Source: Rhizophagus irregularis (lineage: Eukaryota > Glomeromycota > Glomeromycetes > Glomerales > Glomeraceae). From it: a stretch of 64,000 bases of DNA. Under the pieces are notes generated by a model. That model made no database searches and had not been told where the DNA came from. It saw only the letters and a list, made by a program, of their open reading frames with translations. Shown in pieces: positions 43,140 to 58,183 of the stretch. The stretch is from positions 1,488,001 through 1,552,000 of the forward strand of contig NC_089440.1 of NCBI RefSeq assembly GCF_026210795.1. The letters are read 5' to 3'. Both the position numbers and the translations under genes were made by a program. Each line of letters begins with the position of its first letter. Position 1 is the first letter of the stretch.

Positions 43140-46100
43140 ATGAGACCTGTTTTTTATTCTTCTTCAAACGTGAATTCATACCGAATAACATCAAAGTTAA
43201 AATTGCCGAATATAGAGTTTTTTTATTTTCAAAATAGGATTATAACTCCTTTTTCGACATCAAAAACTTTATCGCGTCACGCTTCTCCAAATCCACCAAA
43301 AAACCATGGCGTAATAAAGAACTTATCAAATACTTTATATAAAACACTATCAAGACAAAAAAAGGAAGAGCATAATACAAAAAGAAGTTATTTATCATTA
43401 TTTGAAGAAGCATTGGGCCTTAAAGTAAAATGGAGCGCAGATTTACTATCTGATTTATTATTACGATTTAAAAGTTCAACTGAAATTAAGAAGAAATCTC
43501 TAGAATTAGGTTTATCACCTAGTAAATTTAAAAAAGTAATGCAAAAATTTGTTGGCGAAGTTTGGGATAATAAACTTACCAGATGTAAAACTGAAACTTT
43601 ACAATCTGCTTATAATGCTAATGGGGTAAGTTTTTTTTCAAATTCATCAAAAGAAAGTATATATATTCGTGATTTAATCTTATTGTTGTTATCTAGAAAG
43701 AAGGAGTAAAAAGAGCATTAACGAGTGCATTTTTGGAGTATATTCCAGAATATATGGAAGAGCAGGATAAAGAAAAATATCATTCACTAAAACAATTAAG
43801 TGACTTGAGTTTTCCTGCAGAATGGCATCCGTCTGCAAGAGCTATGCAACGGTATGCTTCATACAATGAATAAATTAATCTTTTCTATAATATTGAAGTC
43901 TTATAACAATTATGTATCAAATTGATAGTAAAATCATCCTGCATGTTGGACCTACAAATTCAGGGAAAACATATAACGCACTTCAAAAGTTAGAAAAAGC
44001 TGAATCAGGCATATATTGTGGACCCCTAAGATTACTTGCTCATGAAATTTTTGATAGGATGAATAACAAAAGTATTCCATGTAATCTTGTAACAGGAGAA
44101 GAAAGAAGGACATTATTAGGAGATCATGTCCCTTTAACCGCTTCAACTATAGAAATGGCTAATTTAAATACTCCATTAGATGTTGCAGTAATAGATGAGA
44201 TTCAAATGATATCTGATCAGCAAAGAGGTTGGGCATGGACTCAGGCACTCTTGGGTTTGCAAGCAAAAGAAATTCATTTATGTGGAGAAGCTTCAGCTGT
44301 TAAATTAGTAAAATCAATATGTGCTAGTTTAAACGAAGATGTCGAAGTTAGAGAGTATAACAGACTTTCAAAACTTGTAGTAGCAAATGAAAGTCTAAAT
44401 GGGGATATAAAGAAAATTCAGAAAGGAGATTGTGTGGTAACATTTTCTAGAAAGGCGATTTTTGGTCTTAAACATGAAATTGAAACAGCTACGGGTCTTC
44501 GATGTGCTGTTGTTTACGGTGCTTTACCACCAGGTAACATATATACTTATATGTAATTCATTATTTTTTTAAAAAAATATTAATATATATTTATAACTTT
44601 TAAGAGACTAGAGCAATGCAGGCTAAGTTATTCAATGATCCAAATAGCGGATATGATGTTTTAGTTGCTAGCGATGCGGTCGGAATGGGCTTAAATCTGT
44701 GAGATTTTGTTATTTGAGTTCTGGATTGAATTTATATTCACGAATTAGATTTAAATTCAACCTTTGGAATTTCAGTAATATCCGGCGAATTGTGTTTGAG
44801 ACTGTAAGGAAATATGATGGGAAGGATATTGGATATGTTCCGATTCCACAAATTAAACAAATTGCTGGACGGGCTGGGCGATATGGGTTTGAAAATTCAG
44901 TTGGTGAAGTTACTGCGTAAGGAGAGTTTTTTTTCCATATTAATAATAATAATAATAAATATTAATACAATCGATTATTTGATAGTTTGGAATCTCAAGA
45001 TTTGAGATATGTCCAAAAAGCAATGGTCACACCTTCTATTGAGTTAGAGGTATTTATTTTATTATCCGTTTTAAAACTTTCTGTCATTTTAAGAGAATAT
45101 TTATGTTAACTTCTAATTAAATAAGGTTGCAGGATTGCAACCTACAATGGAAATGGTTGAACAATTTGCTCATCAATTGCCCGATATTAAACAATTTGAA
45201 AAGCTCTTGGTATGTTTTTGAATTGTTATTGCTTAACCTGAAAGATTTTTTAAATTCGTTTATTTTACTTTTTTTATATATAGGAAAAATTTGAAGACTT
45301 ATCTCGTGTCGATGGACAATTTTTTTTGTGTAATTTTGATACTCAGAAGGTAAATTAAGTAGTTGTTTTTTTTTATTCTTTTTTTAAATCAAAATAATTA
45401 AAAATAAATTATATTTTAGGCAATTGCTAAATCGATTGAACACGTTGATTTGACTATACCTGAACGTTTTATTTTCGCAACATCTCCCGTAAATATATCA
45501 GATCCAAAACTTGTCACTATTATCAAAATGGTATTACGAAAAATATCGACATTTGTTTTTTTAATTTTTATAAATACTAAATTACTTTTTTTTCTTAATA
45601 AATAGTTTGCGAAACATTACAGTGAACGAAAACCAATTTCACTTAATTCAGTCGTGTCTCTTGATGTTAAAGTACCAGAAGATACGTTGGGTCTATCTCA
45701 TATTGAATTGAAACATCGTATAATCATGTTATATTTGTGGCTAAGGTACGATTCCATGGTCTTACATACCTATACATGGGGATGAATTGGGTTCGGCACA
45801 TTACACCAATTTGGCATTACAGCAGTGTGATATGAATCATAATTTGGTGTAGTATATTTCACCATTACGCCGAATTATTACATTCTCATGTATAGGTCTC
45901 ATTTTTAATAAATAAATATATGATTATTTATTAATTTACTTTATTAAAATATGAAAACAGTTATAGATTATCGGAGACATTTTTAAATATTCAAGAAGCA
46001 CTCGAAATGAAATCAAATTGTGAAACGATCATTCATCAATCATTACAATCAATGAAATTCTCAAGAAAACGACATCGTATAACGAAATCCGATGTTAAAG

Positions 46101-46484: not shown

Positions 46485-48229
46485 ATGTTTGATCCTTTTT
46501 TATTAAATATAAAGTTTTTTTCTTTAAAAAACTTTTTGAAATTTTTGATTTCCTTTTTGATTTTTTATGTATTACAATATTATATTAGATATTTTATAGG
46601 AAAAAGAAATTCACTTCCCGGGCCAATACCTTTACCAATTATAGGAAATTTACATCAAATCGGAATAAGATTTAATAAATTTGCTAATGAACAGACCAAA
46701 AAACATGGAAATTTCTGGGAATTTTATATAGGAAATCAAAGAAATATTGTTATATCACAACCAAGATTAATACAAGAATTATATAAAGAAAATAATAATT
46801 CAATAAATTATTTTACAAAATATAAAGATGTTAAATTAGATTTAGATAATATTACTATAAATTATGGTGCTATATTTAATAATGATCATGAAAAATGGAA
46901 AATTTATAGAAGAGTTTTTGAAAAATCTATTTGTTCCATAAATTTTTTAAAAGGTTTAACAAAATCTATTCAAAATATTTTTAATGAAGTAGAATTAAAT
47001 TGGAATAATGATATTATTTCATTAGATTTATCAGTTTGGAGTAGACATTTTTTAACAGATATTATATTATCAACATCAACAAAAGAATCATCATATTGTT
47101 TTATGAAAGCAATTAATAATAATAATAATAAGGATAATGATAAACGTATTAGTAAAACACGAGAAAAGATGATCAATTCTTTAAATTTATTTAATTCAAT
47201 TGAAACTTATTTTAATTCATTAATTTATTCCAATTCAATTCCTCAATTGATTAGAAATTATTTACCAGGATTTAGAGGTTTATCAGAAAAATTTAGAAGA
47301 AATAATAAATGGTTATTTTATAATTTATTAGAAATTATTAAACAAAGAAGAAAAGAAATCGATTTAATGAGAGAAAATGAACCTATCAATTCAACGGATC
47401 TCTTGGATATTTTGTTAACAATAAATACTCCACGTGATCCAAACGGGTTCGGATTTGGATTTGATGAATTTGATAATGAAAAATCAATGACTGATCATGA
47501 AATTCTAGCAACTATATTAGATATTGATATTGGCGGCAGAGATCCGGTAAAAAGAAAAAGAAAAATTATTATTTTTTTTTTCTTGTTGAAAAATTTAATA
47601 ATATAATTAACATACAATATTATTATTTTTTTTTTTAGACTGCTAGTACATTTTGTTTTGCAGTTTATAATATTTGCAAAAATTCTGGAGTGTTACAGCG
47701 TTTACGTGAAGAAATCTTTGAAGTATTGGGCAACGATTTTTTACGACCAATAACATTCGAAGATTTAAATAAATTCCAATACCTCGAAGCAATAATTAAA
47801 GAAACACAAAGAATAATCCCGTTAAATCCATTAATAACACGTCAAACACATGTTAAAACAGCACTTAATGGACATATAATTGAAAAAGATACTCCGATAT
47901 GGTTACACCAAGAAAAACTTCATAAAGATAAAATTTCTTGGTATGAACCAGAAAAATTTATTCCGGATCGATTTTATAATAGTAATAATAATAAAGAAGA
48001 AAATGATAAAGAAAAAAATAGTTTTATACCTTGGTGTGATGGTATAATTAGAAATTGTCCAGGAAAAAAATTGGCTATAGTTATATTAAAATGTTTATTA
48101 ATATTATTATTTAGAAAATATAATGTTGAATTAATTGATAAAATTAGTCCTGCTAAAGTAGTATATTTTGGTACGAATCGTTCTTTCGATTTGAAAGTTA
48201 ATTTAAAAAAGATAGAAAGTTTTTATTAA
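46485..48229 (+). CDS. Cytochrome P450 with unusual haem-binding loop
   Basis: Two exons (46485-47546, 47639-48229) give 550 residues. The N-terminus has a hydrophobic anchor (FLKFLISFLIFYVLQYYI) and a proline hinge (LPGPIPLPIIGNLHQIG), so it is endoplasmic-reticulum anchored. The I-helix reads IDIGGRDPTAS, with Pro before the conserved Thr. ExxR is ETQR (E409, R412), and the PERF segment is PEKFIPDRF. The Cys loop reads FIPWCDGIIRNCPGKKLA with Cys494. The usual spacing is G-x-R-x-C-x-G; here it is G-I-I-R-N-C-P-G, one residue longer, and the glycines before it are Cys-Asp. Family members are mono-oxygenases; the substrate is unknown, and these changes may alter activity. It is one of the few genes here with a single intron. 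Confidence 0.88.
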
Positions 48230-48954: not shown

Positions 48955-50147
48955 TTAAGTATCAGCTGTAACCCTTGCTCCAATATCATTCATTTGAGAA
49001 AATAACGGATCATTTTCACCCAAAACATAAGTTAGTGTCGCTTTCTTATAATAATCCTTAGCAAACTTCTCCAAATTTTCTATAATGTCATCTAATAGGT
49101 ATGCTTTAGCAATTGCTATTCCCCCAGTAATAGTATCATTTCTAAGATGTGTAACATGGACATGAAAGTGATCTGTAATTTAGGGAAATAAAAAGAATTT
49201 TTTAACTCGGTTCAAAAAAAAAAATAAGACTCGCGTACATATACTTACAATATGATGGCAAATGATGAACAAAAAGGCGTAATTCATCAGATCTTATTCC
49301 AGGATATTTTTGTGGAACGAAATGAAGAATTTGACGTCTTAAATTCTTAAGCAATGGCAAATGCGTGTCATTTAAATCACGTATACAACGAATATCTCTT
49401 CTATGTACAATGGCGACAAGATAAAGATTTTCCAACGTTACAGTGTCCCATTTCATATCCGGTAATAAAATAAATCCAGTTGATTCTTCTTCAACTTCTA
49501 ACACGATCCTTTCAGATTCACTTTTCTTGGACAAAATATTGTAAACCCATTGAATTCTGCTTGTAGGTATAGATTCAATATAAGGTTTAACGATTGTTTC
49601 GTAAATATGAGGAGTTTCTCGAATTAAGAAACGAGGTTGAAAACTGTATTTTCGTATATGCTATTGAAAATTTATACATATCATTAAAAGTAAATATTAA
49701 CCAATGATAAAAGAAAAGAGTTTACCGCTTCAGTAGCAGGCCAAATAAGCGTAGCTTTGAAATCTGGAAATTTTTCGTCCTTTGTCAATAAACCATTGTA
49801 CCAATGGTATATGTCATTATTATCTGTGGAAATCCATTGAAGAATTCTTTCCTTTAAAAGGTTAGGAAGTTCTTGACTGCCAAAATGTAATTTTTCTAAT
49901 AACAATATTGCATCTTTTGGGTCTTCAGATGATGATGAAGATTTAAGTTTTCCTAAAATGCATACTCCTTTTGTACGAGGGTCTTTGACGAAAAAAAAAA
50001 AAAATAATATTTTAATAAATGTTTAATTTTTTTAGACCAACTTTAATAATCACCTTCATTAAGGACTTGAATAAATTCAAATTTTTTTAATTCTTCACTA
50101 GTAGGAGCACGTTGAATTTTAGAATCATCATTGTTTTGAGAGGACAT
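48955..50147 (-). CDS. DCPS: Scavenger mRNA-decapping enzyme DcpS
   Basis: Four exons, minus strand (50147-50054, 49982-49726, 49660-49249, 49172-48955), give 326 residues, close to human DcpS (337). The N-terminal dimerisation domain includes KATLIWPATE and HIRKYS, both typical of the family. The C-terminal domain has the histidine triad YHFHVHVTH; H258 is the expected nucleophile, flanked by H256 and H260, preceded by LRLFVHHLPSY. DcpS hydrolyses the m7GpppN cap left after 3'-to-5' mRNA decay, releasing m7GMP. It works in cytosol and nucleus as a dimer. The catalytic HIT motif is split by the last intron (49173-49248) but is restored in phase. Confidence 0.95.
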
Positions 50148-50348: not shown

Positions 50349-53009
50349 TTACACCCGAATAATATTTTCGTTTTCTACTCTAGAATCATTACAAGTGCCA
50401 AACATCGTTTCCATCAACTTCAACTTTTTGTTTCTAAACCAATCTATTAATCTATTACTATTACTGATATTTACCGGCATATAATTTTTTCTATTTTCCA
50501 ATTTAACAACATTATCTTCAGAAATTCTAATCCAAAGAGGTTTTTCCCAAGATTTTAATAACAAATTAGAAAATACAACAGGCAAACTAATTAAATAAAT
50601 GAAGATAACAGCCAAAATAGGATTTAAATAAAAACCTAACAACAACAATAATAAATTTATAGGTATTGATAATAAATTACATAAACCGATATAAATAAAA
50701 TTATATTTCATTCGATTAAATAATTTTCTTAAAAAATCGAATAAAGATATTATATCAGTTAACAAATTTCCATTCATGAACATAATATCAGCAGAATAAT
50801 CCATGTTATAATCCGTGGTTAAAGAAGATAATGATATACTAATATCAGCTTTTGATAATGCTAAAGAATCATTTGTATCATCAGCATTTCCTACCATCGC
50901 TACTATTTCATTTGACAATTGTAATGATTGAATAATATTTAATTTTCCTTTTGATGAAAGTTGTGAATAAACAACGTCTATACCACATTTAGAAGCAATC
51001 GATTGAGCAGTCAATTTTTGATCTGCAGTTATCATAGAAACTTTTAATCCCATAGATTTTAATGCATCGACAGTTAATTTTGATTCAGGTTTAATTGAAT
51101 CCGATAGAAATAATGAACCCATAAAAGAATCATTAATAGCGACAAATATTGTTGTTCTACCTAATAATTCTTGTTTTTCTTTAATTATCAAAGCTGATTG
51201 AGGAATTTCAATTTGATATAATTGTGAAATAAATTCAATATTTCCGATTAAAACGTTATAAACTTTTGATGTAGCGTAAGATGAAAAACGAGCGGAAGTA
51301 TTAAGTAAAACATCACATTTAATTCCATGTCCCGGCATGGATTCAAAATTATTAATATCAATATCATATTCATTCTCATTTGAACTTAATAATTGTTTAC
51401 TAAATTCAACTATAGCCTTTCCTATTGGATGATCACTTGAAGATTCTGCAGCCTCAATAATTGTAAAAAATGTTTCAGGAGTGATTTCTGATAAGTTCAG
51501 TTCATAGTGAGCCACATCAAATTTTCCTTGAGTTAATATACCAGTTTTATTAAAAACTACTTCTGTTATTTTGGATCCAACTTCAATTATTCTTCCTCCT
51601 TTAATTAATATACCATTTTGAGTTCCAATCTCTGTACCAATCATAACAATTATTGAACTACTTAAAGTTAATATATAAGGACAAGCCATAATTATAATTG
51701 AGATACTTGATTCTCCCCATAAAATAAAAGAAATGATTCCTAATAATATAATTATAGGAATAAAATAAGTTATACATTTATCCACAAATAATTGAATGGG
51801 TGCTTTATTCGTTTGAGCTTCTTTAACAGATTTAATAATTTGTGATAAAATAGTATCATTTCCTACGCGTACAATTTGCATTTCAAAGTATCCTGATCCA
51901 TTAATTGTTCCAGCAAAAACCTCATCACCACGACGAACATTTTTTAATACTTTATTAATAATATTTTTTCCAGTTATAATTGATTCATCTACGTCAGAAA
52001 CTCCTGATATAACTTTCCCATCCGAAGGAATAATAGTTCCTGGTGTAATTTTTACTATATCACCTACTTGTAAACATTCTGTTGGAATGGTCTTTTTTCC
52101 AGTGATTTCTCCAGTTTTAGAATTAATATAAATAATAGTTGTTATTTCAGGAATAAGGGATAATGATCTTGCTATAGATTTCAAACTTTTTCTTTTGATC
52201 ATATTTTCTAAATAATGATTTAACATAAGGAAAGTTATTAACGTGGTAGATATATCAAACATTATCAAAGGATGTGATGAATTCGTGCTAAAAATTGAAT
52301 AAATCATTGAGACACAAGAAATAATGAATAATAATAAAGTAGTAATTATGAACAACATATCCGTAGTAAATTTTCCATATCTAAGATCTTTAAATGGTCT
52401 AATATAAAAATTTTTTCCAAATCCAAATTGTACAGGAATACTTAATAAAAATGAGATTAAATCACCAATGAATAAACCATGAAATAATTCTATATCGACA
52501 ATACTTTGTATCAAGGAAATGATAATAATTGGTATAGTAAATGATAAAGAATAAAAAAGTGCATTCCTCCATTTTAAAATACTTTTTCTTCTAGTAAAAT
52601 ATTCCAATTGATTTAATTTAACATTATTAATGAATTTACATTTTAATCCCAAACATTCAACTTTTTCTATTATATCTCTTGTTCCTAATAAATTTTTATC
52701 ATATTTTATTAGAGCATTTCCTGTTGCAAAATTAATTTCAACATTTTCTATACCATTCACTTTACATAATTGTTTTTCCATCATATTGATAATTGATGGA
52801 TCATTTAATTTAAATATATGTAATTCAATGTTATCCATTTGTTCATTTATCCCATGCGTTGTGATCGATGTAAGAGAATTCGAATTTGTTGATGTATGAT
52901 TCGATGTTGCGAAAAATGAAAATTCCGTATCCACCGACAACAATGATAATTCATCATCATCTTTCATAAACATATCATTTAAGGTTTCAATATTATTTAT
53001 GTCTTTCAT
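50349..53009 (-). CDS. Copper-type P1B-ATPase homologue with degraded catalytic motifs (likely pseudoenzyme)
   Basis: One uninterrupted 886-codon frame, start ATG at 53009. The architecture is that of copper ATPases: an N-terminal HMA-like domain (about 60-130), paired membrane helices (about 150-235), an actuator domain (about 300-390), helices around a CPx site, P and N domains, and two last helices. But almost every signature is changed. The HMA metal motif is KLNDPSI instead of GMTCxxC. The transport motif is CPY (443-445) instead of CPC. The phosphorylated Asp is Asn487 (NKTGILT for DKTGTLT). The actuator TGES is TGKN (346-349). TGDN is TADQ (661-664). GDGIND is GNADDTND (707-714). Only the SSDHPIGKA box in the N domain is intact. 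It therefore cannot form the phospho-intermediate in the usual way. The long intact frame argues against a recent pseudogene. It has no intron, unlike its neighbours. Confidence 0.9.
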   Translation of the reverse strand: MKDINNIETLNDMFMKDDDELSLLSVDTEFSFFATSNHTSTNSNSLTSITTHGINEQMDNIELHIFKLNDPSIINMMEKQLCKVNGIENVEINFATGNALIKYDKNLLGTRDIIEKVECLGLKCKFINNVKLNQLEYFTRRKSILKWRNALFYSLSFTIPIIIISLIQSIVDIELFHGLFIGDLISFLLSIPVQFGFGKNFYIRPFKDLRYGKFTTDMLFIITTLLLFIISCVSMIYSIFSTNSSHPLIMFDISTTLITFLMLNHYLENMIKRKSLKSIARSLSLIPEITTIIYINSKTGEITGKKTIPTECLQVGDIVKITPGTIIPSDGKVISGVSDVDESIITGKNIINKVLKNVRRGDEVFAGTINGSGYFEMQIVRVGNDTILSQIIKSVKEAQTNKAPIQLFVDKCITYFIPIIILLGIISFILWGESSISIIIMACPYILTLSSSIIVMIGTEIGTQNGILIKGGRIIEVGSKITEVVFNKTGILTQGKFDVAHYELNLSEITPETFFTIIEAAESSSDHPIGKAIVEFSKQLLSSNENEYDIDINNFESMPGHGIKCDVLLNTSARFSSYATSKVYNVLIGNIEFISQLYQIEIPQSALIIKEKQELLGRTTIFVAINDSFMGSLFLSDSIKPESKLTVDALKSMGLKVSMITADQKLTAQSIASKCGIDVVYSQLSSKGKLNIIQSLQLSNEIVAMVGNADDTNDSLALSKADISISLSSLTTDYNMDYSADIMFMNGNLLTDIISLFDFLRKLFNRMKYNFIYIGLCNLLSIPINLLLLLLGFYLNPILAVIFIYLISLPVVFSNLLLKSWEKPLWIRISEDNVVKLENRKNYMPVNISNSNRLIDWFRNKKLKLMETMFGTCNDSRVENENIIRV

Positions 53010-54648
53010 GTTTTTTTTTAATAATAAATCAACGAGTTAACAACACTATGATTTTTTTTTTTAAAAAAAAAAGGAAAAGAAATTTTTTAAGATTTTTTTT
53101 TTTTTTTTTTTATTTATTTGTTTTTTGGCTCAATATATATAATAAATTGAGATTATCTAATAAACTCCCAATGTAGCTAAATGTATGATGTCAAATTTGG
53201 TTTTTTTTTCTGCGATTGAATAAGGTTATTTTATGAAGCTTTAAAAAGTAAATACATATTGAGTTTGTTGCATAGCGAACATAAATCAATGATAAAAAAA
53301 ACTACGAGCATAAGTTAAAGCATTAGTCTAAGCATATTAATATAATCAATAAATCAAGTTTTAAAAAAAATCTCATGAATATCTTATAAATTTGAAGGGC
53401 TTTGTTTAAATAAACTTTATTTTTCGATTTTAATATTACCGGATGTTTAGGTATGTCTAAAGGATGTATGTCTAGGTACAAGCGTTCCGCATATTAAGTG
53501 AGTCACTACATTATAAAATTTTATGACCAACTTATTTTACCTAAAAGAAAAAATGGTTTTATGAAATTTTCTTTTATCGGTTAATAAATCGATACTATTA
53601 TTTCTTTTTTTTTAAGAAAAAAAAAAAATTTTCTTTTTAAAGAAGTTAAAAATAAAGATAATCTCAAAAATTTTAAATTAGTTAAATAAGTTTAAATTAA
53701 TTTTAACATGCATGCATCGTTGAACTTTGATGACCTTTGATGATACTTTTACTTTATATAATACATATTTTAAATGAAATATCTGATAACGTAAATTATT
53801 AAACAATGATGTTTTCTTTTTTTATTGTCTCCGATTAAATTTTATTCTCGAAATAATGTAAAAATATACTTTGGTTTATAATAAATAATAATAGAATCTT
53901 CTTTCTTTATTTGGATGAACGGAGATAAAAGGATCATTTTTTCCCAAGGTTTTTCATTTAATTTGGGACTTTTGGCTTTTCGAGTGCATACATCAGAATT
54001 TTTTGATTGCTGACAATCAAACGCGCATTAAGATAAATAATTTAGCATGTGTAAATTAAAGGCTTATAATATATCGAATTTGAGGGGTACATTACATGGG
54101 TGATACTATAAAATGATGATGCAGTCTTAGAGGTCATGTGTGGAAGTATATTTGGACCCCATGATATCTGTGTAAATGACAACAATTGAGCTCGTCATTT
54201 TCTCATTTTCTTCGGTATTATTTTCTTGTATTAAATAATTTCAATACTAAGATAAACGAATATGGATAAGCATTTTTTACATTATCATTTGACTTGAATT
54301 GATTTATGAAATTTATTAGCAATTTATTAAGTAATTCGAAAAGCTTTAAGCAAACGAAAAGAAAAGAAAAATCACCCCATTTAAATAATTATTTTGTCAC
54401 GAAAACCTTTAATGTAACTGTAATTCTTATAAATTCGGAAAAATAAAATATTATGTAATGCTAATATATATCACGTGATTAACCGTTTTTCTGGTTTATT
54501 TGGAACACAGTTTCAGAATAACAGTCTTTCACATGTTGATGCTTGAATATAAAACTCACGTGAATTATCATAGATCTTCGAAGACCAAAAATTCCTTACA
54601 TACAATATATTTCGCGGTAAGATGTACATTATTATACATATTAAATTA
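53010..54648. other. Intergenic
   Basis: AT-rich spacer between the ATPase promoter and the 3' end of PIN4. No coding frame seen. CACGTG sites lie near 54475 (ATCACGTGATT) and 54559 (CTCACGTGAATT). Confidence 0.55.
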
Positions 54649-55701
54649 CTATTTTCGACCCTCCTAATAATATCAAATTAATAAAAAATTAAAAAATTAA
54701 AAATATATTAAATAATTATATTATATTTCATATTTCATATAATAACTTACAACCAATATTATATGGTATCCAAATTTTGTTTTTATCTGTTTATTAACAA
54801 ATAGAAATACAGATCAGCCATTATATATTATTATATATTAATATTTTTTACTATACACATACCGGTGGATTTGTAAAAATTGGATTGTCTAATAATAAAT
54901 ATTATTAAAATGTGAGATAAATCTGCAAATTAATAAATTATAATTGATAAAGATAAACAATTAATGTACCTAATGTGCTTGGTTGTAATGCGAACGCGGC
55001 ATCTTGGAAATCTCCTACCATCGATCCGCGGTTCATCCAACCTAAACTACCTAGAAATCATTAAATATTATTTATTATTCAAGCCAAAAATCCCCAAAGT
55101 TTTCATGTGACCCAATTAAAACTATTCATTAATATATTACTAACCTCCTTGTTTCGCTTTATCTTCGCTATATAATTCCGCAACCTAATAAAGAATAAGA
55201 TAACGATTATATAATAAAAGTCTTAATTATGATATTGATATAATAGTCTAACATTTGCCTTATCAAATCGCATGTTTTCAACCGTTAATTTATCTAAAGC
55301 TTCCATGATCTATAAAATTTGAATTGAAGGAAAAATAATTGAATTATATGCAAAATTATATTAAATAAAAAAAAATAAATGTTCACAAGTTACTTTGGAA
55401 TGTTTCTCACACAATATATGTCTAACCTGCAATGAAAAAAACAATTTTTCCATTTTAAGGATAAGTAAATGGTTGATAGTTGGCTAAACTTGCTGTGGTA
55501 AATTTAATTTTAATTACTTTCACACTGTTTGCGGCTTTTAATTTATTAGATTTTCCTGAACTTTCCTCTATTGAAACGTTAATTAAAATTAAAGAATAAA
55601 TTGAATTAAAAGGAATTAAACGCAAACATACCCTCAGTATCCGCGGTTTTTTTATTACTTTTTCCTTTACTACTTCCTCCCTGACCTTTTGATTTGCCCA
55701 T
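54649..55701 (-). CDS. PIN4: Parvulin-type peptidyl-prolyl isomerase PIN4 (Par14)
   Basis: Nine very short exons, minus strand (55701-55632, 55567-55518, 55426-55394, 55309-55259, 55184-55145, 55050-54970, 54888-54863, 54786-54751, 54663-54649), give 133 residues (human PIN4 131). The N-terminus is a basic Gly/Ser/Lys-rich tail as in Par14. The parvulin domain follows the family closely: [11 protein letters not shown] (H43, C46), [43 protein letters not shown] and [19 protein letters not shown]4 isomerises prolyl bonds and in animals works in pre-ribosome processing and DNA binding. The fourth intron appears to use a GC donor (AAG/GCAAAT), because this gives [12 protein letters not shown], matching the family; a GT donor six bases on would insert AN. 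Confidence 0.9.
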
Positions 55702-56035
55702 TTTAAATAAGTAAAACTATCCAAAAGAACTTTTTAATGAGGAAGATTATCAAAGAACTTATGATGAAATTCGAGGCTGATTAATTGACCTCGTAAACTA
55801 AAATCGGTTCAGTGCGTGTAACCTGTTTGAACAACCAATCAATTGATGATCTCGTCTTTATTTCATTTTCCCAAAAAAAAAATCCGACTGAAAAAAAATT
55901 TTTTTCCCTCATTTTTACTCCCGCGTTTTTTTTTAGAGTTTTAAAAGGAAAATTGTTTTATTAATAAAAAAAAAAGTATTTTTAAATATATTAAAAATTT
56001 TTTTAAAATAATTTTTTTTTAAAGCAAGCTTTAAT
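55702..56035. other. Short divergent intergenic region
   Basis: 334 bp between the PIN4 start (minus) and the start of the small acidic protein (plus). Presumed shared promoter region with long T and A runs; no specific site recognised. Confidence 0.5.
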
Positions 56036-56515
56036 ATGCAAGTAAAACGAAGTATAGAACAAGTTGAACCCCAACTCTTGCAGGAATTAGTAATTCCAAT
56101 AAAGAGACAAAAATCCAGTTATGAGTGGGAAGTTTTCTTGGAGTTATTCCCCTTCAATTTATCTGAACCTTATACAACAGAAACTCCTATCATAGCTGAT
56201 TATAATAATATTCAAGAAATGGACCTCAATAAATCAGTCGCTCCACATAAACTAGAAGTTGAGTCGATTGAAACACTCGAGTTTTCGGAAGTTGACAATA
56301 GTGAGTATGAAGCAGACATTTCTTCTTCTTCCTCAGATGAATATTCTGATTCTTCTGTTGAAGATTCAGATTCTTATGCTTCAGAAGAAAGCGAATTTGA
56401 AGTAGTTATCAAAAAGAAGAAAAGATGCGGCGCTATGTGGAGTCCGGAATGTCGTCGTGCAAGACGCTGTATTTGCGCTGAAAAAATCGACGACTATGAT
56501 GATTATGACGAGTAA
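56036..56515 (+). CDS. Unknown acidic protein with Cys-rich basic tail, 159 residues
   Basis: Single exon from a clear ATG. I do not recognise it. Residues 1-30 include a possible nuclear localisation signal (PIKRQKSSYEW). The middle (about 75-125) is very acidic and serine-rich (SSSSSDEYSDSSVEDSDSYA), offering many casein-kinase-2-like sites. A Lys run (KKKKR) precedes RCGAMWSPECRRARRCIC, with four cysteines in 18 residues that could bind metal, and the protein ends in Asp/Tyr repeats. A GTAAGG donor-like site lies 4 bp after the stop, so a longer spliced form is possible. Nuclear location is a guess from composition. Confidence 0.6.
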   Translation: MQVKRSIEQVEPQLLQELVIPIKRQKSSYEWEVFLELFPFNLSEPYTTETPIIADYNNIQEMDLNKSVAPHKLEVESIETLEFSEVDNSEYEADISSSSSDEYSDSSVEDSDSYASEESEFEVVIKKKKRCGAMWSPECRRARRCICAEKIDDYDDYDE

Positions 56516-57480
56516 TACGTAAGGGCAGTGGGAAATTGGAGGCTTTGTTTACTATGTTCGCTGGATGCTTATAGGGGTTTTCTGTGGTATTTTCAAGTGT
56601 AAATTTGGGCAACTTAACTCTTTGGATTGGCTAGCGATTATAATTAACGCTACGGGTAAACCAAAAGTGTTGATATTTCAAAGAGGTCTTAGGACGAATC
56701 AGTGGTGATAGTTACTAGAGGCTGTGGAGGCGCAGTTTCGTGCTCTTTCAAGGATCTAGGGTTATTGTTAAGAATCTTCTTGTACAAATTTACTTCTCAT
56801 AGGTTTGAAAGTAACAGTTCTACGAGATAAAAAACGATATACATGGATTTTAATGTCCGTGTTTCATCTTTTTTTTTCTTTAAGATTTGTGCATTTTGTG
56901 CATATAGTAATCAAATCTACGTTTGTTTGATGAAGATTACGATTTGCACATTTACGGTCCTTTTTCGTCGGGGTTATTATTGTCAGAACAACAGGAAGCG
57001 CCGATGAAAAACAAAAGCTCCGACCATCCGCAATTGTTCATCATTCTTGGATTCTTAGATTACATCACCAAAAAAAGACGCGTCATCCTCATTGATAGAC
57101 ATTTCTGTATTCCCGCCGATCCATTCTGGAGGCAAAAACAAAATCATTTTTATTTTTAATTTTTTTTTTCTTTTCTATCATTTCTTTTATTATTATTATT
57201 TTCATAATTTGGTAGACTAAGGGGTTTATTTTTGTACTTCAGCGAATAATTTGTATGGCATTATTCTCCCTCCCTCTCCCTTACCCACAAACAACAAAAT
57301 TCGAGATTCATTAATAATAACAATATATCTGAACGTTTCTAATCGATTTGATCACTATCTTTTCAATTCAATTAAATTAATGGTGTAAGTTCGTCCTTAT
57401 TTCCTTTGATTGTGGGATCTAAGGCTATTATCCAAAATCAAATTATATTATTGTGTATATTTTCAGTGTACGAATGGATA
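56516..57480. other. Relatively GC-rich non-coding stretch
   Basis: From about 56520 to 57165 the base composition is clearly less AT-rich than other spacers here. One plus-strand frame stays open for about 62 codons (56522-56707, ending GLRTNQW) without an early ATG, and a 78-codon frame (56923-57159) begins at TTG only. I cannot support either as a gene; it may be a long 3' untranslated region, a non-coding RNA or decayed coding DNA. Confidence 0.4.
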
Positions 57481-57681
57481 ATGCTACCTATAAATATTAA
57501 GAATGATGTTCTTAAAGGATTTGGACATAAAATCTTAAATTTATCAGGTAATTCTTGTTAATAATATATCTGATCAAGTTATTTATATGCATCTTACCAT
57601 ATAAATTATTATGATATCAAGTTTACCATTCCCAGATTTCCCTTCTGAGATTTTAACCAAAATGTCTCAAAAAGAAATATG
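57481..57681 (+). CDS. Possible small spliced gene or F-box-like fragment
   Basis: Two putative exons (57481-57547 and 57636-57681) join in phase through good GT-AG sites and read MLPINIKNDVLKGFGHKILN, then LSDFPSEILTKMSQKEI. The FPSEILTKM segment looks like the start of an F-box. A further exon after TTTAG at about 57764 could continue CKFLWNFTSLNQPKMFG and stop. The total would be only about 60 residues. No family is certain, and this may be a fragment. Confidence 0.25.
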
Positions 57682-58183
57682 GTAAGCATTAATTTCCTGA
57701 TTCATCTAATGAATTAATTTAATCTCGGTTGTTTTGTTCCCGAGCAATATTATCTAAGCATTTAGCAAGTTTTTATGGAATTTTACGAGTTTAAATCAAC
57801 CAAAAATGTTTGGGCCGATTTAACTTAGTTAGAATTTTTAAACTGTGGCGCTAAAAAGAGAAAACTTATTTGTTACACAAAATAAAGATTCATCAATTTT
57901 TCTTTTGATTTCTTAGTAAACTTTATTTCCTAAACGCGTGATTCATATAAAAAAATTTTTTCTTTTGTGAAACACTCAGCTGTTTTTGTGTATAATGATC
58001 GGACACAAATAATTTCCGATCTTGGAAGCTAAAATAAATTTTTTTGCTAAGCCACAATAATCATATGATTTCAAATTTAAAAAATTTTTTTTTCATTCTC
58101 GAAAACAATAGGCAATAAAAATTCATTTTGTTAATAGTTTTTTTTTTACTTTTTTTTCAAAAAAAAAAAAATTTTGTAAAATT
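57682..58183. other. Intergenic, promoter of the GET2-like gene
   Basis: AT-rich spacer. It may contain a third exon of the small gene to its left. Long T and A runs directly precede the GET2-like start codon. Confidence 0.4.

What the first reader, a model, noticed from the sequence alone, without database searches (positions are those of the whole stretch)
50349..53009. Full-length copper ATPase with every catalytic signature degraded
The 886-codon frame is intact and keeps the P1B-ATPase layout. Yet the phosphorylation Asp is Asn487, TGES is TGKN, TGDN is TADQ, GDGIND is GNADDTND, CPC is CPY and the HMA Cys pair is gone. Loss of many active-site residues with no frameshift or stop over 2.7 kb suggests a retained pseudoenzyme (perhaps a metal sensor, a partner of an active pump, or a decoy) rather than a dead copy. 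It also lacks introns in an intron-rich region, which would fit a retrocopy.
Basis: partly seen in the sequence, partly recalled or inferred. Interest (0 to 1): 0.8.

Follow-up and report, generated by a model that had tools for sequence, protein, structure and literature searches.

The report
Inactive copper-pump look-alike in mycorrhizal fungus
A fungal gene that descends from copper pumps still makes a full-length pump-shaped protein, but the residues needed to take up phosphate from ATP and to carry copper are gone, so it most likely does some other job, such as steering its working relatives.

Summary
Window 50349-53009 (minus strand) is an intact 886-codon frame for a P1B (Cu) ATPase paralogue. 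The phosphorylation Asp is Asn487, the A-domain Glu is Lys348, CPC is CPY, and the TM7/TM8 copper ligands and all CxxC domains are lost. Not every signature is degraded: the N-domain ATP-binding residues and several P-domain residues remain. The genome is very probably Rhizophagus irregularis (two published primers match exactly). Four P1B loci were found, as many as published (CCC2.1-2.3, CRD1); by elimination this is one of the CCC2 genes, reported as a transcribed Cu-ATPase. The two closest, motif-intact paralogues are also single-exon, so missing introns do not show a retrocopy. Neutral decay is disfavoured: matching the conserved-site losses gave on average 16 stop codons in simulation (lowest run 5; 0 seen), indels keep the frame, and codon models with the gene's own composition prefer omega 0.02-0.05 over a neutral phase by 21-27 log units (little preference with stationary composition). 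Best reading: a retained, copper-blind, phosphorylation-dead pseudo-pump that may still bind ATP. A role as partner or regulator of the active CCC2 pumps is inferred. Orthologues in other fungi could not be tested.

The parts
50349..53009 (-). Full ORF of the P1B-type pseudo-ATPase (886 aa, single exon)
52626..52832 (-). Single Cys-less HMA-like domain (aa 60-128); the upstream CxxC HMA domains of the paralogues are absent and no remnant was found in the 5 kb upstream
51966..51968 (-). Lys348 in place of the A-domain Glu (TGE > TGK), followed by 2-residue insertions at aa 349 and 355
51714..51719 (-). Point (aa 431/432) where 24 residues of the TM5-TM6 loop of the paralogues are missing
51675..51683 (-). 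CPY (aa 443-445) in place of the TM6 CPC copper site
51549..51551 (-). Asn487 in place of the phosphorylated Asp (DKTGT > NKTGI)
51144..51473 (-). N-domain (aa 513-622, boundaries mine) with the ATP-binding residues kept: E522, H527, G560, G562, I563, N590
51018..51029 (-). TADQ (aa 661-664) for TGDQ of the paralogues
50868..50891 (-). GNADDTND (aa 707-714) for GDGIND: two-residue insertion, both Asp and Asn kept
50676..50684 (-). LCN (aa 776-778) for the TM7 LYN copper ligand motif
50586..50600 (-). IYLIS (aa 804-808) for the TM8 MAFSS copper ligand motif

Best explanation
The gene is an old paralogue of the fungal Golgi-type copper pumps (CCC2 clade) that has become a retained pseudoenzyme. 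Shown from sequence: the frame is full length; the residue that takes phosphate from ATP (D487N), the A-domain residue that serves its removal (E348K) and the copper ligands of membrane and N-terminus are gone, while the ATP-binding N-domain residues are kept; the frame has stayed open against neutral expectation. Inferred: it folds like a P1B-ATPase, sits in the same membranes, binds ATP without forming a phosphoenzyme, moves no copper, and works through binding other proteins. My first choice is a nucleotide-responsive partner or brake on the two motif-intact CCC2 pumps. Confidence 0.65 applies to 'retained, transport-dead pseudo-pump'; I give about 0.25 to the specific partner or regulator mechanism.
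For: Motif losses and codons. At 85 sites conserved in at least 95% of 29 motif-intact relatives the gene lost 25 (gaps counted as losses); leave-one-out losses among those 29 were 0-13 of 85-97. D>N at this site is a standard dead mutant: in yeast Ypk9p D781N autophosphorylation was abolished (PMC5837089, passages read). Constraint: 0 stops against means of 15.6 and 15.5 and minima of 6 and 5 in 300 neutral runs from each of two proxy ancestors, matched to 23 of 80 conserved-site losses (equilibrium G+C 0.25 and kappa 2 assumed); 17 indels specific to this gene from aa 60 on, 14 of them within aa 60-822, all keeping the frame; omega = 1 on its branch worse by 27.7 log units than a free omega; with its own codon make-up, a neutral second phase is worse than the best omega tried by 26.8 (uniform over sites, best 0.02) or 20.6 (following ancestral site classes, best 0.05) log units. 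None of the 12 neutral settings tried reproduces codon-position G+C, identity, conserved-site losses and stops together. Fold: the AF2 model has pLDDT of 77-90 in blocks over aa 481-700 apart from dips at 541-550 and 571-580; best PDB match is the Cu P1B-ATPase 7r0g, Z 29.0, 639 residues, rmsd 4.9. Transcription: Tamayo et al. 2014 (PMC4196481, passages read) report three CCC2-clade genes plus CRD1 and state that transcripts of all the transporters were detected; G000 shows four loci over the TIGR01525 cut-off (12 of 55 candidates scored), and the search with this protein shows the same four as closest (25 of 25 candidates scored).
Against: No orthologue from another species or strain could be examined, so conservation of the dead state is not shown. 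Synonymous change between the paralogues is saturated (branch lengths at or near the limit of 40), so omega values are rough, and in the best class-following fit the functional phase shrinks to zero, so the time of the loss is not resolved. Under a stationary codon model neither the one-phase (lnL -6957.4) nor the class-following model (-6956.2) beat a neutral second phase (-6955.7), and the uniform-omega model beat it by only 4.2. Its protein branch is 1.13 against 0.16 and 0.18 for the paralogues, GC1/GC2 are 0.32/0.32 against 0.46-0.48/0.37-0.39, and F,Y,M,I,N,K make up 39% against 29-30%: constraint is clearly relaxed. The link to a named CCC2 gene and its transcripts is by elimination. 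That C10 and C26 are active pumps is inferred from their motifs.
Confidence: 0.65

Rival explanations
1. A gene in slow decay: function was lost or became dispensable not very long ago, the frame is still open by luck and residual constraint, and the protein does nothing useful.
For: Six- to seven-fold longer protein branch, strong A+T drift at codon positions 1 and 2, losses in all nine parts examined, and no clear rejection of a neutral phase under stationary codon models.
Against: About 16 stops expected and none seen for the observed conserved-site losses; indels keep the frame; neutral second phase rejected when the gene has its own codon make-up. If 8 of the 23 losses were neutral an open frame came up in 2% and 1% of runs; if 3, in 20% and 18%.
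Confidence: 0.22
2. A still-active transporter with an altered cycle or substrate, for example one that uses another acceptor residue or moves another ion without CPC.
For: ATP-binding residues, K488, D663, K689, D710 and D714 are kept.
Against: The acceptor Asp and the A-domain Glu are both replaced, and ligands in TM6, TM7 and TM8 are lost together. D>N at the acceptor abolished autophosphorylation in Ypk9p (PMC5837089, passages read).
Confidence: 0.07
3. A retrocopy of an intron-containing copper ATPase that decayed after insertion.
For: No introns in the ORF. The C8 paralogue is interrupted.
Against: Both nearest paralogues are single open frames of 1216 and 1171 codons, and the interrupted C8 gene is outside their clade. 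The sense 3' flank begins T-rich; short A runs further on cannot be told from the A+T-rich background.
Confidence: 0.03
4. A copper sensor: the protein binds copper without moving it and signals the level.
For: Cys443 and Asn770/Asn778 of the membrane path are kept.
Against: No CxxC motif, CPC > CPY, YN > CN, MAFSS > IYLIS, 11 Cys in all.
Confidence: 0.03

Closest known systems
CCC2-clade P1B-1 copper ATPases of Rhizophagus irregularis (CCC2.1-2.3; PMC4196481, passages read)
   Same: Groups with the two motif-intact paralogues C10 and C26 (100/100), 45-47% identical to them, single exon like them
   Different: Acceptor Asp, A-domain Glu, CPC, YN, MxxSS and CxxC domains lost; TM5-6 loop shorter by 24 residues
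P4-ATPase-like domain of Plasmodium guanylate cyclase beta (PMC6592433, passages read)
   Same: A P-type ATPase body for which that paper could not identify most signature residues, kept in a working protein
   Different: That one is a P4-like domain fused to a cyclase, and the same passages report that the cyclase part made cGMP without it in P. yoelii; this is a free-standing P1B protein with no added domain seen
Laboratory dead mutants of P-type ATPases: ATP7B C983S/C985S/D1027A (PDB 7xun, 7xuk; entry titles) and Ypk9p D781N (PMC5837089, passages read)
   Same: Changes at the CPC and at the acceptor Asp (equivalence of the ATP7B sites recalled); D>N mutants of ATP13A1 and ATP13A2 reach their normal compartments (legend)
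   Different: Here the changes are natural and joined by loss of TM7/TM8 ligands and N-terminal domains

Membership tests
P1B-type ATPase (by descent) | Sequence in the family by profile and tree | tested here: met
   TIGR01525 389.6 bits over cut-off 346.25; clade with C10/C26 100/100
P1B-1 copper-transporting ATPase (as a working pump) | Phosphorylated Asp in DKTGT | tested here: not met
   NKTGI, AAT codon
P1B-1 copper-transporting ATPase (as a working pump) | TGE Glu of the A-domain | tested here: not met
   TGK
P1B-1 copper-transporting ATPase (as a working pump) | CPC in TM6, YN in TM7, MxxSS in TM8 (motif roles recalled) | tested here: not met
   CPY, CN, IYLIS
P1B-1 copper-transporting ATPase (as a working pump) | N-domain ATP-binding residues E, H, GxG-I, N (set recalled from ATP7B) | tested here: met
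   E522, H527, G560, G562, I563, N590; E, H and GxGI line up with 7si3 (ATP7B) in the alignment
P1B-1 copper-transporting ATPase (as a working pump) | TIGR01511 copper-translocating cut-off | tested here: not met
   356.5 against 397 bits
Pseudoenzyme | Catalytic residues lost | tested here: met
Pseudoenzyme | Open frame and fold kept by selection | tested here: met
   No stops, frame-keeping indels, codon models (little preference); fold compatible. One genome only
Pseudoenzyme | Dead state conserved across species; a non-catalytic function | not testable with these tools
   No other fungal genome was reachable; viral-contig search with the protein found no relative
Retrocopy | Intron-containing nearest parent with intronless copy | tested here: not met
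   Nearest paralogues are single open frames
Retrocopy | Poly-A tract and target-site duplication | tested here: inconclusive
   Sense 3' flank begins T-rich; repeats around the gene are A+T-rich low-complexity matches; target duplications not tested in detail

The most novel reading that the evidence does not exclude
A dedicated, copper-blind P1B pseudo-pump that binds ATP but forms no phosphoenzyme and controls the active CCC2 copper pumps of a mycorrhizal fungus: a free-standing regulatory P-type ATPase pseudoenzyme.
Probability: 0.25. Interest if true: 0.75.

Novelty: new variant of a known kind. Interest (0 to 1): 0.5.

Why it matters
Pseudoenzymes are well known among kinases and phosphatases (recalled). 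For P-type ATPases, a search of the library for papers holding both 'pseudoenzyme' and 'P-type ATPase' gave 0, and the nearest precedent that I saw is a degenerate domain inside a Plasmodium cyclase. If the reading is right, one of the four published R. irregularis 'copper ATPases' is not a pump, which changes how their expansion is read and offers a tractable case for what a pump body can do without pumping.

Tried and rejected
The second (window protein with 5 relatives, mean pLDDT 65.4, pTM 0.52) was used only for the fold.

Orthologue search: viral contigs with the window protein gave 18 pattern matches and no relative; genome contigs with the paralogue alignment gave 24 loci, all with prokaryote titles. 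Neither collection is meant to hold fungi, so this says nothing on absence.

Codon usage as evidence of selection: the gene keeps gene-like synonymous usage (0.051 against -0.073, sd 0.014, for re-drawn synonymous codons), but I judge that a neutral phase of about 0.4 substitutions per codon would hardly move it, so I do not count it.

Domain contrast: at sites where C10 and C26 agree, losses are 30-33% in the A, first P and N parts and 44-58% in the other six; over the nine parts chi-square p is 0.043; the contrast A+P1+N against membrane parts (p 0.0006) was grouped after seeing the data, and against the second P part p is 0.053. Suggestive only. Conserved sites lost 23 of 80 against 212 of 470 others that agree in C10 and C26 (p 0.007), but evolution before the loss of function inflates the second number.

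Tree: 16 of the 30 rows were used. The position within the trio is unresolved: WIN with C10 82/77; C10+C26 not rejected (p-AU 0.38), nor WIN+C26 (p-AU 0.21).

Upstream HMA remnants: tblastn of the paralogues' N-termini against window 52501-58000 gave one hit under E 0.001, and it falls inside this gene's own HMA-like domain.

Rows dropped: of 42 relatives with the motifs, 26 with CPC/CPH-AL and distinct sequence were kept, with C10, C26 and C8. That set was filtered on DKTGT- and GDGxND-like motifs, so their conservation in it is by construction; C10 and C26 were not chosen by motif and carry them. A smaller first version (65 sites, 16 changed) was superseded. The C8 sequence used is an inferred splice.

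A promoter and terminator scan of the 5' side uses bacterial consensus patterns and was not used. Paper searches gave nothing on a natural P1B pseudo-pump in what I saw (0 papers; 12 of 77 listed; 10 of 12 listed).

Full report
What is there. Window 50349-53009 on the minus strand is one open frame of 886 codons, matched at C12:1538352-1541009 in a genome of 146.7 Mb in 32 contigs. It carries the E1-E2 ATPase and HAD hydrolase domains and passes the profile of heavy-metal P-type ATPases but not that of copper-translocating ones. By sequence its best-scoring solved relatives are ATP7B, plant HMA4 and bacterial CopA.

Which organism. Two primers printed in a paper on Rhizophagus irregularis (PMC4153046, passages read), one for RiTEF and one for RiPTR2, match the genome once each without mismatch, and their reversed controls not at all.

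Its family in the genome. A heavy-metal ATPase profile finds four loci over its cut-off: on C26, C10, C8 and this one (12 of 55 candidates scored, so a lower bound). A search with this protein, 25 of 25 candidates scored, puts the same four on top, followed by weaker matches to other P-type ATPases. Tamayo et al. 2014 (PMC4196481, passages read) list four copper ATPases for R. [quoted passage not shown] The window gene groups with C10 and C26 (100/100), so it should be one of CCC2.1-2.3, and C8 should be CRD1. In the passages that I read the paper treats all four as copper ATPases and does not mention missing residues. I could not match gene identifiers, so naming and transcription rest on elimination. 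A review (PMC11953731, passages read) cites work on RiCRD1; that work I have not read.

Introns. C10 and C26 are open frames of 1216 and 1171 codons without interruption, so intronlessness is shared by the clade and the retrocopy idea loses its premise. The C8 gene is interrupted.

What is lost and what is kept. C10 and C26 keep all the motifs compared here. Against them the gene has D487N, E348K, T491I, G662A, C445Y, Y777C, and Ile for the Met and the first Ser of MAFSS in TM8. It lacks their 4 and 3 CxxC motifs; its one remaining HMA-like domain corresponds to one that lacks CxxC in C10 and C26 too. It keeps E522, H527, G560, G562, I563 and N590 of the N-domain, and K488, T661, D663, K689, D710, N713 and D714 (the ATP7B set itself is recalled). 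At 85 sites conserved in at least 95% of 29 motif-intact relatives it lost 25, gaps counted, while leave-one-out losses among those relatives ran from 0 to 13 of 85-97. Three other P-type ATPases of the genome that I had in hand keep DKTGT, TGES and GDGVND.

Is it decaying neutrally? The gene evolves fast: branch 1.13 against 0.16 and 0.18; changes unique to it in aa 60-822 number 227, against 49 and 58 in C10 and C26. But it has no stop. In 300 neutral runs from each of two proxy ancestors, stopped when 23 of 80 conserved sites were lost as observed, the mean number of stops was 15.6 and 15.5 and the lowest 6 and 5 (equilibrium G+C and kappa were assumed). Its 17 specific indels from aa 60 on keep the frame, 14 of them in aa 60-822 (some neighbouring ones may be alignment choices). 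The neutral distances that give about the observed first-position G+C leave identities of 0.17-0.29, where 0.47 is seen, and 41-50 stops. Codon models reject omega = 1 on its branch by 27.7 log units. With a functional phase followed by a second phase that has the gene's own codon make-up, omega = 1 is worse than the best value tried by 26.8 or 20.6 log units. With a stationary make-up a neutral second phase does as well as or better than two of three alternatives and loses to the third by 4.2. Synonymous change is saturated, so I use the codon models as support and rest the case on the missing stops and frameshifts.

Fold. The model, built on six sequences, has mean pLDDT 65.4, with block means of 77-90 over aa 481-700 apart from two dips. 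Its best structural matches are P1B-ATPases: 7r0g Z 29.0 over 639 residues, HMA4 Z 28.2, and the mutant ATP7B C983S/C985S/D1027A Z 25.0. The alignment contains motif-intact ATPases, so this shows compatibility, not proof.

Mechanism. Without acceptor Asp and A-domain Glu there should be no phosphoenzyme cycle: Asp to Asn at the acceptor abolished autophosphorylation in yeast Ypk9p, and such mutants of ATP13A1 and ATP13A2 still reached their compartments (PMC5837089, passages read). Without CPC, YN, MxxSS and CxxC there should be no copper path or copper loading. What remains is a membrane-anchored, possibly ATP-binding body with the shape of its paralogues. The most economical use is as a partner, brake or trafficking decoy of these pumps. 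That step is inference; nothing here tests it.

Precedent and novelty. A degenerate P-type ATPase body inside a kept protein is described for the P4-like domain of Plasmodium guanylate cyclase beta (PMC6592433, passages read). A search for papers with 'pseudoenzyme' and 'P-type ATPase' gave none; searches for catalytically inactive P-type ATPases (12 of 77 listed) and for non-functional copper P1B paralogues (10 of 12 listed) showed me no natural free-standing P1B pseudo-pump in their listings. The library lacks many journals, so this is weak evidence of absence. I file the gene as a new variant of a known kind.

Noticed in passing
46485-48229 (+): Cytochrome P450 gene in two open pieces, on the downstream side of the pseudo-ATPase and on the other strand (Pfam p450 on both).
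   Followed up: no
49205-49534 (-): DcpS_C (scavenger decapping enzyme) piece, next open frame downstream on the same strand.
   Followed up: no
43912-44556 (+): Suv3-type helicase domain.
   Followed up: no
45795-45878; L014:5056-5141: About 87 bases 75% identical between the downstream sides of this gene and of the C26 paralogue (E 1e-9); may be a dispersed repeat or a trace of duplication.
   Followed up: no
L014:708-4070; L013:784-4416: The membrane-proximal HMA domain lacks CxxC in both motif-intact CCC2 paralogues as well, an oddity of this clade in this genome.
   Followed up: partly
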